A stretch of DNA of 21,427 bases. Origin: Prevotella sp. (GTDB taxonomy: Bacteria > Bacteroidota > Bacteroidia > Bacteroidales > Bacteroidaceae). The translations under genes were made by a program, and so were the position numbers. The notes beneath the pieces are model-generated. The model worked only from the letters and a program-made list of their open reading frames with translations. It did not search any database and was not told the DNA's origin. This document shows, in pieces, positions 49 to 19,924 of the stretch (positions are counted from its first letter, which is position 1; every line of letters begins with the position of its first letter). The stretch is from the NCBI GenBank assembly GCA_017428805.1, contig JAFRQC010000110.1:1-21427 (forward strand), written 5' to 3'.

Positions 49-76
49 GTGAAAAGTGAAAAGTGAAAAGTGAAAA
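49..76. repeat. heptamer tract, GTGAAAA x4
   Basis: Four perfect 7-bp units. It lies between the leftward promoter at 31-38 and the DUF4199 gene. The same word in the opposite orientation (TTTTCAC) occurs at 11069-11096, and the 8-bp relative GTGAAAAG occurs at 694-731. Confidence 0.95.
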
Positions 77-133
77 GTTTCACATTTTAACTATTTTTTT
101 TGGCAAAGGTCAAGATATATGCCATAAAATGTG

Positions 134-141
134 TAATTTTG
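134..141 (+). promoter_or_regulatory. candidate -7 box for the DUF4199 gene
   Basis: TAATTTTG matches TAnnTTTG and lies 27 bp before the ATG at 169. No TTTG is found at the usual 19-21 bp upstream, so the match is only partial. Confidence 0.5.
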
Positions 142-168
142 CAGCCTGAAAGTGATAATTGTTAAATA

Positions 169-705
169 ATGACCGCTCCAGAGTACATACAATTAAAAGC
201 ATACGCCCGTCAGGATGGTTTCTTCCTCGCCCTTTTGTGGACGGCGAGTTTCGCCTGCTATATCCTGGGCATCACGAACCAGATGCTTGAGATGCTGGCC
301 TTAGGTCTCGCCATTACGACGCCTTTCTTTGTGGCCAGCCGTCTGCGCAAGTTCCGCGATGAGGGTAGGGAAGGGCAGATCTCCTTCGGTCGCAGCTATG
401 CTTATACGATCTTCGTGTTCTTCTATGGTGCCGTGCTGCTGGCCGTAGTGCAGTTCCTTTATTTCGCCTACGTCGACAACGGCTACCTGCTGAATGCCTT
501 CTCACGGATGATGAGTTCAGAGGAAGGCCAGCAAATCATCAGCCAGTACGGTATGTCGCAGATGGTGGAAGAAGGCTTGGCAGAGATGGCCCAGATCCGT
601 CCGATAGACTATGCGCTGAACATCCTGACGATGAATATCATCATCGGATTCATCCTGGGTGTCCCCATCGGCCTCGTGATGCAGCGCAGTGAGGTGAAAA
701 GGTGA
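169..705 (+). CDS. DUF4199 family membrane protein
   Basis: This is a 178-residue integral membrane protein of a Bacteroidota family of unknown function (DUF4199). Hydrophobic helices are visible at about residues 18-36, 38-55, 80-105 and 150-172, with a more polar stretch at about 112-145. It is followed by a family 2 glycosyltransferase, the usual neighbour of DUF4199 in this phylum, so a role at the envelope is plausible but not shown. ATG at 169 is preceded by an A/T-rich leader without a Shine-Dalgarno sequence. The natural C-terminus seems to end near residue 174 (VMQRS). The last codons and the TGA stop (703-705) come from the GTGAAAAG tandem tract. Confidence 0.85.
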   Translation: MTAPEYIQLKAYARQDGFFLALLWTASFACYILGITNQMLEMLALGLAITTPFFVASRLRKFRDEGREGQISFGRSYAYTIFVFFYGAVLLAVVQFLYFAYVDNGYLLNAFSRMMSSEEGQQIISQYGMSQMVEEGLAEMAQIRPIDYALNILTMNIIIGFILGVPIGLVMQRSEVKR

Positions 706-731
706 AAGGGTGAAAAGGTGAAAAAGTGAAA
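694..731. repeat. octamer tract, GTGAAAAG x4-5
   Basis: Four 8-bp units with single-base variants plus a partial fifth fill most of the gap between DUF4199 and the glycosyltransferase. The DUF4199 stop codon lies in the second unit. The same word, inverted, is translated inside the cyclo-ligase at 9372-9403. Confidence 0.9.
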
Positions 732-758
732 TAATTCCGTAAATCGTAAATTAATACA

Positions 759-17693: not shown

Positions 17694-17705
17694 AACAATA
17701 TAGAT

Positions 17706-18692
17706 ATGACTTGGCTGAATATCTTGTTTATTATCATTGGCGTGGCACTCGTCTTGTGGGGTGCAGACCGCCTGACGGAGGGCGCCTCCTCCCTGGCTCG
17801 TGGCATGCATGTGCCCGAGATTGTCATTGGCTTGACCATCGTGGCTGCAGGCACCTCAGCACCAGAGCTGTTTGTCAGTCTGGTGTCAGCCCTGAAGGGC
17901 ACCGCCGACCTCGCCGTGGGTAACGTCATAGGTTCGAACATATTTAACACGACGCTCATCGTCGGCTGTTCCGCCTTAGTGGCGCCGATGGTGGTGCAGA
18001 AGTCCACCGTCCGCAAGGACATTCCCTTTGCCGTCGTCGCTTCATTGCTGCTCTTCGTTCTCTGTTTCGACGATATGGACTCGCCCCACCTCTGGGGCAA
18101 CGAAATCACCCGTTCCGACGGTGTTATCCTGCTCCTCGGCTTCCTCGGCTTTATGATCTACACTTTCCACACTGCCAAGAAAGACGGCCTGATGCCGACG
18201 GAAGAAGAACTCGAAGATAATGCCGAACTGCCGAAAGACTACTCGCGTCTCGGCCGCAACATTTTCTGGATAGTCCTTGGTCTGGGATGCCTGATCTATG
18301 GCAGCAACCTCTTTGTCGATGCCGCCACCTATGTCGCCCATCGCTTCGGTGTGCGCCAAAGCGTCATCGGCCTGACTGTCGTCGCCGGAGGTACGTCGCT
18401 GCCCGAACTGGCCACCAGCGTGGTTGCCGCCTACAAGGGCCGCTCCGCCATCGCCATCGGCAACGTCATCGGTTCCAACGTGTTCAACATCCTGCTCATC
18501 CTTGGATTGACGGCTGTCATCCATCCCCTGCGCATCATGGGCATCACGATTGTCGACCTCATGGCGCTGCTGGTCTCCATCGGCTTCCTCTGGCTCTTCG
18601 CATTCACCAAATGGTATGTCTCACGCCGTGAGGGCGCAGTCCTGGTAGTCAGCTTCCTGTTGTATATGGGCTGGCTGTTCTACCTCATATAG
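17706..18692 (+). CDS. calcium/sodium antiporter (CaCA family, YrbG-like)
   Basis: 328 residues, an integral membrane cation exchanger with two inverted halves of about five helices each. The alpha-repeat motifs are AAGTSAPELFVSL (E54) and AGGTSLPELATSV (E234), each followed by GNVIGSN(I/V)FN; these line the ion path. A cytoplasmic loop (about 155-178, KKDGLMPTEEELEDNAELPK) joins the halves. It exports Ca2+ using Na+ or H+; specificity is not certain from sequence. The stop is immediately followed by the preQ1 riboswitch of the next unit. Confidence 0.92.
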   Translation: MTWLNILFIIIGVALVLWGADRLTEGASSLARGMHVPEIVIGLTIVAAGTSAPELFVSLVSALKGTADLAVGNVIGSNIFNTTLIVGCSALVAPMVVQKSTVRKDIPFAVVASLLLFVLCFDDMDSPHLWGNEITRSDGVILLLGFLGFMIYTFHTAKKDGLMPTEEELEDNAELPKDYSRLGRNIFWIVLGLGCLIYGSNLFVDAATYVAHRFGVRQSVIGLTVVAGGTSLPELATSVVAAYKGRSAIAIGNVIGSNVFNILLILGLTAVIHPLRIMGITIVDLMALLVSIGFLWLFAFTKWYVSRREGAVLVVSFLLYMGWLFYLI

Positions 18693-18699
18693 TAACATT

Positions 18700-18735
18700 C
18701 AGGGGTCGACGAACACCCCCTTTAACAAAACAAAA
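18700..18735 (+). promoter_or_regulatory. preQ1-I riboswitch
   Basis: The layout fits the class I preQ1 aptamer seen in Thermoanaerobacter tengcongensis. P1 pairs AGGGG (18701-18705) with CCCCU (18717-18721); the loop starts with UCG and contains an AAC segment; a free C (18716) sits where C15 binds the ligand. The signature tail UUAACAAAAC (18722-18731) matches exactly. It lies between the antiporter stop and the start of a queuosine-precursor transporter, the expected target. The tail runs straight into the AUG at 18736 with no GG for a Shine-Dalgarno, so control may act on the start codon itself (inference). Confidence 0.85.
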
Positions 18736-19431
18736 ATGCAACAACAAAAGAAACAACAACGAATCAGCGTGCTGTTCATGTTCTACAGCATCCTGTTCTG
18801 CGTCTGCCTGATTACGGCAAACGTACTCGAGACCAAGCAGATTTCCTTAGGACCTGCGAACATGACGGCGGGACTCATCGTCTTCCCCGTCAGTTACATC
18901 ATCAACGATGTGGTGTGCGAGGTGTGGGGCTATGGCCGCACCCGAATGCTCATCTGGCTGGGGTTCGCCATGAACTTTTTCTTCGTGACCATGGGAGCCA
19001 TTGCCGACTGGATTCCCGGCGCCTCCTACTGGGAAGGCGAAGAGGGTTTCCATCAGATCTTCGGCCTCGCTCCCCGTATCGCCGGCGCCTCCTTCCTGGC
19101 GTTCGTCTGCGGGTCGTTCATCAATGCCTACATCATGAGCCGCATGAAGCTCTCGTCCAACGGCCGGAACTTCTCTTTCCGTGCTGTGCTCAGTACGATC
19201 GGCGGCGAGCTGACAGACTCCATCATCTTCTTCCCCCTGGCCCTCGGCGGCGTCATTCCCTGGGAGGAGATGCCTTCGCTCGTCATCACCCAGGTCACGC
19301 TGAAGACCGTCTATGAGATCATCGTCCTGCCTGTCACCATCCGTATCGTGAAGTTCACCAAGGAGCACGACCACGAGGATGTCTACGACAATGGCATGGT
19401 ATATAACATTTTTAAATTGAATCTGGATTAA
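18736..19431 (+). CDS. yhhQ: queuosine precursor transporter (YhhQ/QPTR family)
   Basis: 231 residues with about six transmembrane helices. The family (formerly DUF165/VUT) imports preQ0 or preQ1 for tRNA queuosine modification. Typical motifs are LITANVLETKQISLGP, FPVSYIINDVVCEVWGYGRTR, the ILSTIGGEL-like segment VLSTIGGELTDSIIFFPLA, and TLKTVYEIIVLPVT. The upstream preQ1 riboswitch and the queF gene 4 bp downstream support the assignment. Because other preQ0-synthesis genes (queC, queD, queE) are not here, the cell may rely on uptake, but they could be elsewhere. Confidence 0.93.
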   Translation: MQQQKKQQRISVLFMFYSILFCVCLITANVLETKQISLGPANMTAGLIVFPVSYIINDVVCEVWGYGRTRMLIWLGFAMNFFFVTMGAIADWIPGASYWEGEEGFHQIFGLAPRIAGASFLAFVCGSFINAYIMSRMKLSSNGRNFSFRAVLSTIGGELTDSIIFFPLALGGVIPWEEMPSLVITQVTLKTVYEIIVLPVTIRIVKFTKEHDHEDVYDNGMVYNIFKLNLD

Positions 19432-19435
19432 GACT

Positions 19436-19924
19436 ATGAACGAGCAGAATAACGAGGAACGAGGAATGAGGAGTGAGGAAGGTCTGCAGGCCCTTGGCCG
19501 TAAGACGGACTACCACATGGACTATGCGCCGGAAGTGTTGGAGACCTTTGAGAACAAGCATCCCGACAACGACTACTGGGTGCAGTTCAACTGCCCCGAG
19601 TTCACCAGTCTCTGTCCCATCACGGGTCAGCCCGACTTTGCTGAGATCAAGATCCACTATATCCCCGGCGAGCGGATGGTCGAGTCGAAGAGCCTGAAGC
19701 TCTACCTCTTCTCCTTCCGCAACCACGGCGATTTCCATGAAGACTGTGTCAACATCATCATGAAGGACCTTGTCCGCCTGATGGAACCCAAATACATTGA
19801 GGTCGTCGGCCTCTTCACGCCCCGTGGCGGCATCTCCATCTATCCCTACGCCAACTACGGCCAGCCCGGCACGAAATATGCCGATCTCGCCGAGCGCCGT
19901 CTGATGGAATATCAGATGAGGTGA
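19436..19924 (+). CDS. queF: NADPH-dependent 7-cyano-7-deazaguanine (preQ0) reductase QueF
   Basis: 162 residues, the short unimodular QueF type. It reduces preQ0 to preQ1. The active site is complete: C60 in FTSLCPITGQPD forms the thioimide, with D67; H101 and E102 in NHGDFHEDC recognise the substrate. These are each five residues beyond the B. subtilis numbering (C55, D62, H96, E97). ESKSLKLYLFS is the family NADPH-site motif. Residues 7-15 (EERGMRSEE) are encoded by a heptamer tract, adding to an otherwise variable N-terminus. It is in one unit with yhhQ and under the riboswitch. An alternative start at M11 is possible. Confidence 0.95.
   Translation: MNEQNNEERGMRSEEGLQALGRKTDYHMDYAPEVLETFENKHPDNDYWVQFNCPEFTSLCPITGQPDFAEIKIHYIPGERMVESKSLKLYLFSFRNHGDFHEDCVNIIMKDLVRLMEPKYIEVVGLFTPRGGISIYPYANYGQPGTKYADLAERRLMEYQMR
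19451..19478. repeat. heptamer tract, AACGAGG x4, in the queF 5' end
   Basis: Four 7-bp units (AACGAGG twice, AATGAGG, AGTGAGG) translated near the N-terminus of QueF, upstream of the catalytic domain. Confidence 0.92.

What the first reader, a model, noticed from the sequence alone, without database searches (positions are those of the whole stretch)
49..19478. A family of four-unit heptamer tracts with different words but one architecture
Ten loci hold exactly four units of a 7-bp word, 28 bp in all: 49, 7277, 9501, 10746, 11021, 11069, 11828, 13191, 17666 and 19451. Two more hold five units (1762, 5702). The words are mostly unrelated (GTGAAAA, AAAGTTC, TCACTCT, CAGTTGA, GGATAAT, ATTGACA, CTGACTC, AACTGTA, AACGAGG, CTCTTAC), yet the copy number and tract length recur, and many tracts have one variant unit at an internal position. 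Chance slippage at independent sites would not be expected to fix the same copy number so often. A common process that makes or spreads tracts of set length seems more likely. STRR heptanucleotide repeats of heterocystous cyanobacteria are the closest known parallel.
Basis: partly seen in the sequence, partly recalled or inferred. Interest (0 to 1): 0.82.

Follow-up and report, generated by a model that had tools for sequence, protein, structure and literature searches.

The report
Four-heptamer arms of dispersed hairpin elements
In some rumen Prevotella genomes, short DNA tracts of four repeated 7- or 8-letter words appear to be the arms, whole or left over, of a large family of tiny dispersed hairpin elements that are gained, lost and replaced by one another at the same places in close relatives.

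Summary
The tracts are real: 12 period 7-9 tracts in the window against 0.005 expected. In 783.6 kb of G001, the nearest held genome, period-7 copy number has a separate peak at 4.0-4.5 units (63 tracts) and only 11 above it, unlike slippage. The words are not unrelated: 10 of 11 window heptamer words recur in G001 outside the orthologous contig, against 3.8% of random 7-mers. The unit behind them is a hairpin of about 80-125 bp: an arm of four 7/8-bp units, an inward motif (GATTAC/GAATAC type), a short variable core, and the same layout inverted. One family aligns at 30 places of one genome with unrelated flanks. Window tracts 5702, 7277, 13191 and 17666 look like half-elements; 11018-11100 looks like a full one with unlike arms. 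Between relatives the same place holds the same word, another word, or no tract. This is REPIN-like (inverted doublets, variable spacer, many singlets), but with no target duplication and no RAYT gene found beside the elements. How they move, and any function, is inferred. A new variant of a known kind.

The parts
48..78 (+). Tract (AGTGAAA) 4.4 units, perfect; no recognised inner motif
   Evidence: same word and place in G001, L076, L077, L078, L079
692..731 (+). 8-mer tract (AGGTGAAA) 5.0 units at the 3' end of an ORF; one unit shorter in G001
1762..1795 (+). Tract (CTCTTAC) 4.9 units inside an ORF, coding for its hydrophobic N-terminal stretch; absent in L079 and L080
4603..4660 (.). Place without a tract in the window where G001, L076 and L077 hold a pair of unlike arms (AATGGAT-type and TTTTCAC-type); L078 and L080 lack it too
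5694..5738 (+). Half-element in an M3 peptidase gene: motif GTAATCAT (5694-5701) and arm (AAAGTTC) 5.3 units; G001 has another word, AATTCTC, between the same flanks
   Evidence: full form with left arm AGTGAAA in L234, L235
7269..7307 (+). Half-element between two genes: motif GTAATCAT (7269-7276, holding the TAA stop) and arm (AAAGTTC) 4.4 units; 7 bp longer in G001
9370..9404 (+). 8-mer tract (TTCACCTT) 4.4 units inside an ORF
9501..9528 (+). Tract (TCACTCT) 4.0 units inside the same ORF; G001 has unrepeated sequence there
10746..10776 (+). Tract (CAGTTGA) 4.4 units inside recF (gene on the minus strand); G001 has a GAGGAGT-type tract at the place
11018..11100 (+). Probable full element with unlike arms: arm AATGGAT 4.4 units (11018-11048), core 11049-11066, imperfect TTTTTCAC/TTTTAC-type arm (11067-11100), between divergent genes; in G001 the left arm is AGTGAAA/AGTGAAG-type
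   Evidence: predicted hairpin z -3.0
11827..11858 (+). Tract (AATTGAC) 4.6 units between stop and start; also in G001, other sequence or none in most other relatives
13183..13220 (+). Half-element in coaE: motif GTATTCTA then arm (CTGACTC) 4.3 units, the AGGAGTC family; 21 bp longer in G001
   Evidence: family alignment; motif assignment by eye
17660..17696 (+). Half-element between stop and start: GTAATC then arm of the CTGTAAA subfamily, with variant inner units; changed or lost in G001
   Evidence: family alignment; assignment by eye
19451..19480 (+). Tract (AACGAGG) 4.3 units near the N-terminus of an ORF; same place in G001

Best explanation
The tracts are the arms, or left-over single halves, of a REPIN-like superfamily of small dispersed hairpin elements. 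A complete element is: an arm of four 7- or 8-bp units; an inward motif (ATGATTACT, AGATTACC, AGAATACTCC or TTTGCTGCCGC type); a variable core; the mirror-image motif; the mirror-image arm. Shown: copies at unrelated places, inverted pairing, an oriented inner motif, turnover at orthologous places, strong predicted hairpins in chosen full copies. Inferred: they are non-autonomous elements copied through a hairpin intermediate by an enzyme not identified here (I give about 0.5 to that step); single tracts are decayed or recombined halves; unit slippage and hairpin-templated correction keep the units of an arm, and its two arms, alike as the words change.
For: Copy-number peak and null. Shared words, 10 of 11. 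27 matched inverted against 3 direct tract pairs within 300 bp in 2.04 Mb. Inner motif beside 50 of 193 G001 tracts against 5 in the wrong orientation and 3 at random places; 30, 2 and 4 of 172 in relatives. Families of full copies with unrelated flanks. Half-motif 55 times in G001 and 60 in G062, none for the reversed pattern; 12 and 20 convergent pairs, 0 divergent, 1 same-direction, 31 and 20 singles. A whole element between TAA and ATG in G062 where G001 has an overlapping stop and start. Hairpins z -10.6 and -9.3, -6.2, -8.1, -5.6 in four further chosen full copies.
Against: 54 of 365 tracts are in a matched inverted pair and 50 of 193 have a recognised motif, so most tracts are assigned by analogy. 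Of 54 neighbouring tract pairs 29 are unlike. Own arms in 21 copies are only slightly better matched than shuffled ones (0.906 against 0.886; 86 of 2000 shuffles as good), and the T-A to C-G double changes sit in the same four copies, so covariation is weak. No target duplication (27 copies). No mobilising gene found: 5 Y1 loci in 3 genomes hold no 7/8-mer tract. The window's own full element folds weakly (z -3.0) and the half-element at 5702 not at all (z 0.79).
Confidence: 0.75

Rival explanations
1. Plain replication slippage: 7-9 nt units are simply the length that the polymerase tends to duplicate, and selection trims long arrays.
For: Heptamers are over-represented in many bacteria and slippage was proposed as the reason (passages of PMC4692102; PMC4679880 section 3). 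Whole-unit differences between window and G001 at 701, 7276 and 13208. Long arrays of broad length in G011 and G048. 69 G001 tracts lie at 2.0-2.5 units.
Against: Second peak at 4.0-4.5 units with only 11 tracts above; inverted pairs, oriented motifs, dispersed full copies, whole-word differences at one place.
Confidence: 0.12
2. Host-level RNA or DNA hairpins (terminators, mRNA stabilisers) kept by selection, with no mobility of their own.
For: 78 of 161 G001 tracts lie between crude gene calls, against about 11% of random points; convergent gaps 17 against 2.7% expected. Two G062 copies sit where a relative has another hairpin between genes. Ends conserved while cores vary.
Against: 73 of 161 tracts lie inside crude gene calls, among them in recF, coaE and an M3 peptidase; orthologous places often lack any tract; patchy presence among congeners.
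Confidence: 0.1
3. Metagenome-assembly artefact.
For: The genomes with dense tracts examined here are assembled from metagenomes where named; gaps of 66-129 bp inside apparently conserved genes between them look like assembly errors. Three of five isolate loci have no tract.
Against: The same tracts lie at the same places in window, G001, L076 and L077. Isolates P6B1 and KHT3 carry 1 and 2 in about 18 kb each.
Confidence: 0.02

Closest known systems
REPINs (REP doublets forming hairpins; PMC3116915, passages seen)
   Same: Two conserved ends in inverted orientation round a variable spacer, predicted hairpin, doublets and singlets both common, dispersed through one genome
   Different: Ends are four tandem 7/8-mers; several word families side by side; inserts also inside genes; no RAYT gene found beside the elements
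GTAG/CGTC-tagged REPs and MITEs (PMC3733652, abstract and passages seen)
   Same: Small palindromic repeats in many copies, between genes and sometimes inside genes; MITEs of 70-300 bp with 15-30 bp terminal inverted repeats
   Different: Tandem-heptamer arms; the passages I saw mention Bacteroidetes only for CGTC repeats; no target duplication seen here
TAACTGA heptamer direct repeats (PMC4679880, abstract and sections 3 and 10 read)
   Same: Heptamer tracts of mostly a few units, often between genes, also in some Bacteroidetes; relatives with shorter spacers lacking repeats
   Different: [quoted passage not shown] no inverted doublets described in what I read
STRR heptamers and small dispersed repeats (SDR) of heterocystous cyanobacteria (recalled; the SDR paper is not held)
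   Same: Recalled: very small mobile repeats often embedded in heptamer arrays
   Different: Not compared here
Rickettsia palindromic elements in coding genes (recalled)
   Same: Recalled: palindromic inserts read in frame in conserved genes
   Different: No heptamer arms as far as I recall

Membership tests
REPIN | Inverted doublets of a repeated end, in excess over other arrangements | tested here: met
   12 and 20 convergent pairs, 0 divergent, 1 same-direction in G001 and G062
REPIN | Conserved ends, less conserved spacer | tested here: met
   30 G062 places aligned
REPIN | Predicted hairpin | tested here: met
   (chosen copies)
REPIN | Associated RAYT (Y1 transposase) gene flanked by the repeat | tested here: not met
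   5 Y1 loci in G001, G061, G062 (4 over the cut-off): no 7/8-mer tract beside them; one single motif match each in L347 and L350, 9-mer tracts in L349 and L350
REPIN | Excision reads | not testable with these tools
   No reads at hand
REPIN | GTAG or CGTC tag at the end of the palindrome | not tested
   -
MITE | Target-site duplication at the ends (recalled as typical) | tested here: not met
   27 copies: direct flank matches no more than in shuffled pairs; a few of the 27 have uncertain ends
MITE | Terminal inverted repeats shared with a full transposon | not tested
   No search for longer elements with these ends beyond
Simple sequence repeat made by slippage | Broad copy-number distribution falling from the shortest tracts | tested here: not met
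   Second peak at 4.0-4.5 units in G001; met by eye in G011 and G048
TAACTGA / STRR heptamer repeats | One or a few words as direct repeats without inverted partner | tested here: not met
   33 period-7 words in 97 tracts; inverted pairs

The most novel reading that the evidence does not exclude
A hairpin-element superfamily whose arms are rewritten: inner motifs persist while each four-unit arm is exchanged for another word at the same place, by arm swapping between families or by template-copying of 7/8-nt repeats. That would be a bacterial way of writing short tandem repeats of set copy number, with no close described counterpart that I know of.
Probability: 0.08. Interest if true: 0.93.

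Novelty: new variant of a known kind. Interest (0 to 1): 0.62.

Why it matters
It gives heptamer repeats, noted as over-represented in many bacteria with little follow-up (PMC4692102 passages), a concrete origin in at least one lineage: arms and remnants of dispersed hairpins. At about 205 period 7-9 tracts per Mb in the G001 sample they are a notable source of spacer and loop variation, reach into recF, coaE and an M3 peptidase, and differ between relatives whose flanks are about 96% identical. It also offers a testable case of REPIN-like elements with no RAYT found beside them, and of how two arms of a hairpin stay alike while their words change.

Tried and rejected
Rejected: independent slippage as the sole maker; unrelated words; known Rfam families at gathering threshold in window, L006, L017 and L018 (only a cobalamin riboswitch in L018); phage or plasmid carriage of the G001 GTTTATA-family copy L017:9007-9120 (no match at E 1e-5); Y1/RAYT linkage; target duplication. 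I first read the L006:12040 place as core kept and arms swapped; on re-reading only the consensus ends of the core agree and the loops differ, so a fresh insertion is as likely, and the claim was dropped. Several clean 66-129 bp gaps between relatives were hoped to be empty sites, but most hold no tract. Paper searches (lists capped; two found no paper) showed by title or abstract start no paper on such elements in Prevotella; one search gave only chance matches.
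Full report
What is there. The window comes from a rumen Prevotella by its nearest named records (the nearest peptidase is 96% identical). Its own assembly is not held, so the wider tests used the nearest held genome, G001 (4.0 Mb, 140 contigs), 94.3% identical to the window over 21,226 aligned columns. 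Third-order Markov resampling of the window gives 0.005 such tracts on average, at most 1 in 200 runs, against 12.

Set copy number. In 783.6 kb of G001, tracts of period 7, 8 and 9 number 95, 42 and 24, against 1 of period 5, none of 6, 1 of 10, 6 of 11 and 5 of 12; periods 14, 15 and 16 give 14, 27 and 13, which in the 400 kb printed look mostly like doubled 7/8-mers. The period-7 histogram has a second peak: 40, 29, 12, 13, 31, 32 and 3 tracts at 2.0, 2.5, 3.0, 3.5, 4.0, 4.5 and 5.0 units and 8 beyond; the null has 12.3 and 1.0 in the first two bins and nothing after. Period-8 tracts also fall off after about four units, and the aligned 8-mer family has about four units per arm (by eye), so the number of units rather than the length seems to be set. 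Period 9 does not show this: most lie at 1.5-2.5 units.

Shared words. Of 11 window heptamer tracts, 10 have a word that occurs exactly in G001 tracts outside the orthologous contig; 3.8% of random genomic 7-mers do, not matched for composition.

Inverted elements. Printing the tracts with their flanks showed like tracts facing each other across a short core. Over 2.04 Mb (G001 stretches and L076-L155) there are 365 tracts, 27 matched inverted pairs within 300 bp and 3 direct ones; 54 of 365 tracts are in a matched inverted pair. Beside 50 of 193 G001 tracts lies an inward motif (GATTAC, GAATAC, TTTGCTGC and kin), against 5 in the wrong orientation and 3 at random places; in relatives 30, 2 and 4 of 172; in the window 2, 0 and 0 of 14. 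Of 54 neighbouring tract pairs 8-85 bp apart, 22 are matched inverted, 3 direct and 29 unlike; 22 of the 54 carry at least one inward motif and 1 an outward one.

Dispersed families. Elements of about 80-125 bp recur at unrelated places in G061 and G062, the genomes of L076 and L077. In the GTTTATA family, 30 G062 places align with the G001 copy, with unrelated flanks: each arm is four heptamers, the inner two nearly invariant, most variation in the unit second from the outer end, and the centre varies in length and letters. In 21 copies (27 found by a pattern, 6 dropped for arm ends that did not fit), 22 of 29 arm positions always pair, while the last two letters of that variable unit pair in 0.43 and 0.48 of copies. 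The same four of 21 copies carry T-A to C-G double changes at three positions, and own arms are only slightly better matched than shuffled ones (0.906 against 0.886; 86 of 2000 shuffles as good), so covariation is weak evidence. The half-motif occurs 55 times in G001 and 60 in G062, with no hit for the reversed pattern: 12 and 20 convergent pairs within 450 bp, no divergent pair, one same-direction pair, 31 and 20 singles. An exact core pattern was found in 4 of 25 genomes searched: G062 12, G001 5, G063 1, G019 1. Predicted RNA hairpins are strong in five chosen full elements (z -10.6; -9.3, -6.2, -8.1 and -5.6, some with one mismatch per unit), weak for the window's 11010-11110 (z -3.0) and absent for the half-element at 5702 (z 0.79).

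Turnover. From window to G001 (flanks 95.8% identical), of 11 tract sites with an ortholog 7 keep the word (one mismatch allowed), 3 have another word and 1 has no tract; one more found no ortholog. From G001 to window: 9, 4 and 2 of 15, one more without ortholog. From five G001 stretches to G062: 17, 7 and 9 of 33; to G061: 11, 8 and 7 of 26; to G063: 3, 1 and 6 of 10; 8 sites found no ortholog. Examples between window and G001: AAAGTTC against AATTCTC in the M3 peptidase loop, CAGTTGA against GAGGAGT in recF, AATGGAT against a GTGAAGA-type word at 11018. In 80 relatives the peptidase loop segment is 90 bp or less in 56 and longer in 24; heptamer tracts or paired elements can be read by eye in at least seven (L076, L077, L079, L085, L089, L139, L144), and other inserts, some palindromic, in further ones. 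A clean empty site is the L342 junction: in G062 a whole element between TAA and ATG where G001 L021 has an overlapping stop and start. Two G062 copies sit where a relative has another hairpin, read by eye, between genes; at two places that look coding, relatives have 33-48 bp between anchors where G062 has about 96. At one orthologous place the core is inverted between G001 and G062.

Place. Of 161 G001 tracts, 78 lie between crude gene calls, 73 inside and 10 at stretch edges, against about 11%, 88% and 1.5% of random points. Density is patchy: none of period 7-9 in 100 kb each of G017 and G025, 11 in 100 kb of G011, and 0, 0, 0, 1 and 2 in five isolate loci of 17-18 kb. G011 and G048 (its contigs chosen for repeat hits) hold heptamer arrays of broad length, 20-84 and 27-137 bp, as slippage would give.

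Reading. Best supported is a REPIN-like superfamily of non-autonomous hairpin elements whose ends are four tandem 7/8-mers, single tracts being halves. The copying enzyme is unknown: no target duplication and no Y1 gene with such arms. What they do for the host, if anything, is open.

The window in this light. 5694-5738 and 7269-7307 are right halves (GTAATCAT then AAAGTTC), the form seen with an AGTGAAA left arm in L234 and L235. 13183-13220 resembles the AGGAGTC family end and 17660-17696 the CTGTAAA subfamily end with its variant inner units (by eye). 11018-11100 looks like a full element with unlike arms. The others carry no recognised inner motif and may be decayed halves or true slippage tracts.

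Noticed in passing
window 9501-9604: The TCACTCT tract and its surroundings are about 5 bp longer than the unrepeated G001 sequence, so the reading frame of the ORF (5-formyltetrahydrofolate cyclo-ligase-like, name recalled) probably differs after it.
   Followed up: partly
window 1762-1795: The CTCTTAC tract codes for the hydrophobic stretch of a putative lipoprotein signal (ISYLIPLISYLLTSC) and is missing in L079 and L080.
   Followed up: no
L006:1400, 5204, 19103; L012:925, 2470; L017:3239; L018:19344; L024:10820: Clean 66-129 bp gaps inside apparently conserved genes between G001 and G062 with no tract; probably assembly errors in one of the two.
   Followed up: no
L017:9013-9115 and G062 C31:49038-49144: Orthologous element with its core inverted between the arms in two relatives.
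   Followed up: partly
L018:19918-19983; L036:1156; window 9003-9063: A separate set of 9-mer tracts (AATTCGTG type), some as inverted pairs across 14-26 bp.
   Followed up: no
L109, L115, L130, L140, L142, L143 (M3 peptidase loop): Other inserts in the same loop, several palindromic by eye, not made of heptamers.
   Followed up: no
L366:2141-2277, 6306-6440 (G048); L365 (G011): Long heptamer arrays up to 137 bp in another family and in a congener, without the set length.
   Followed up: no
L018:19673-19854, minus strand: Cobalamin riboswitch (RF00174, 102 bits).
   Followed up: no
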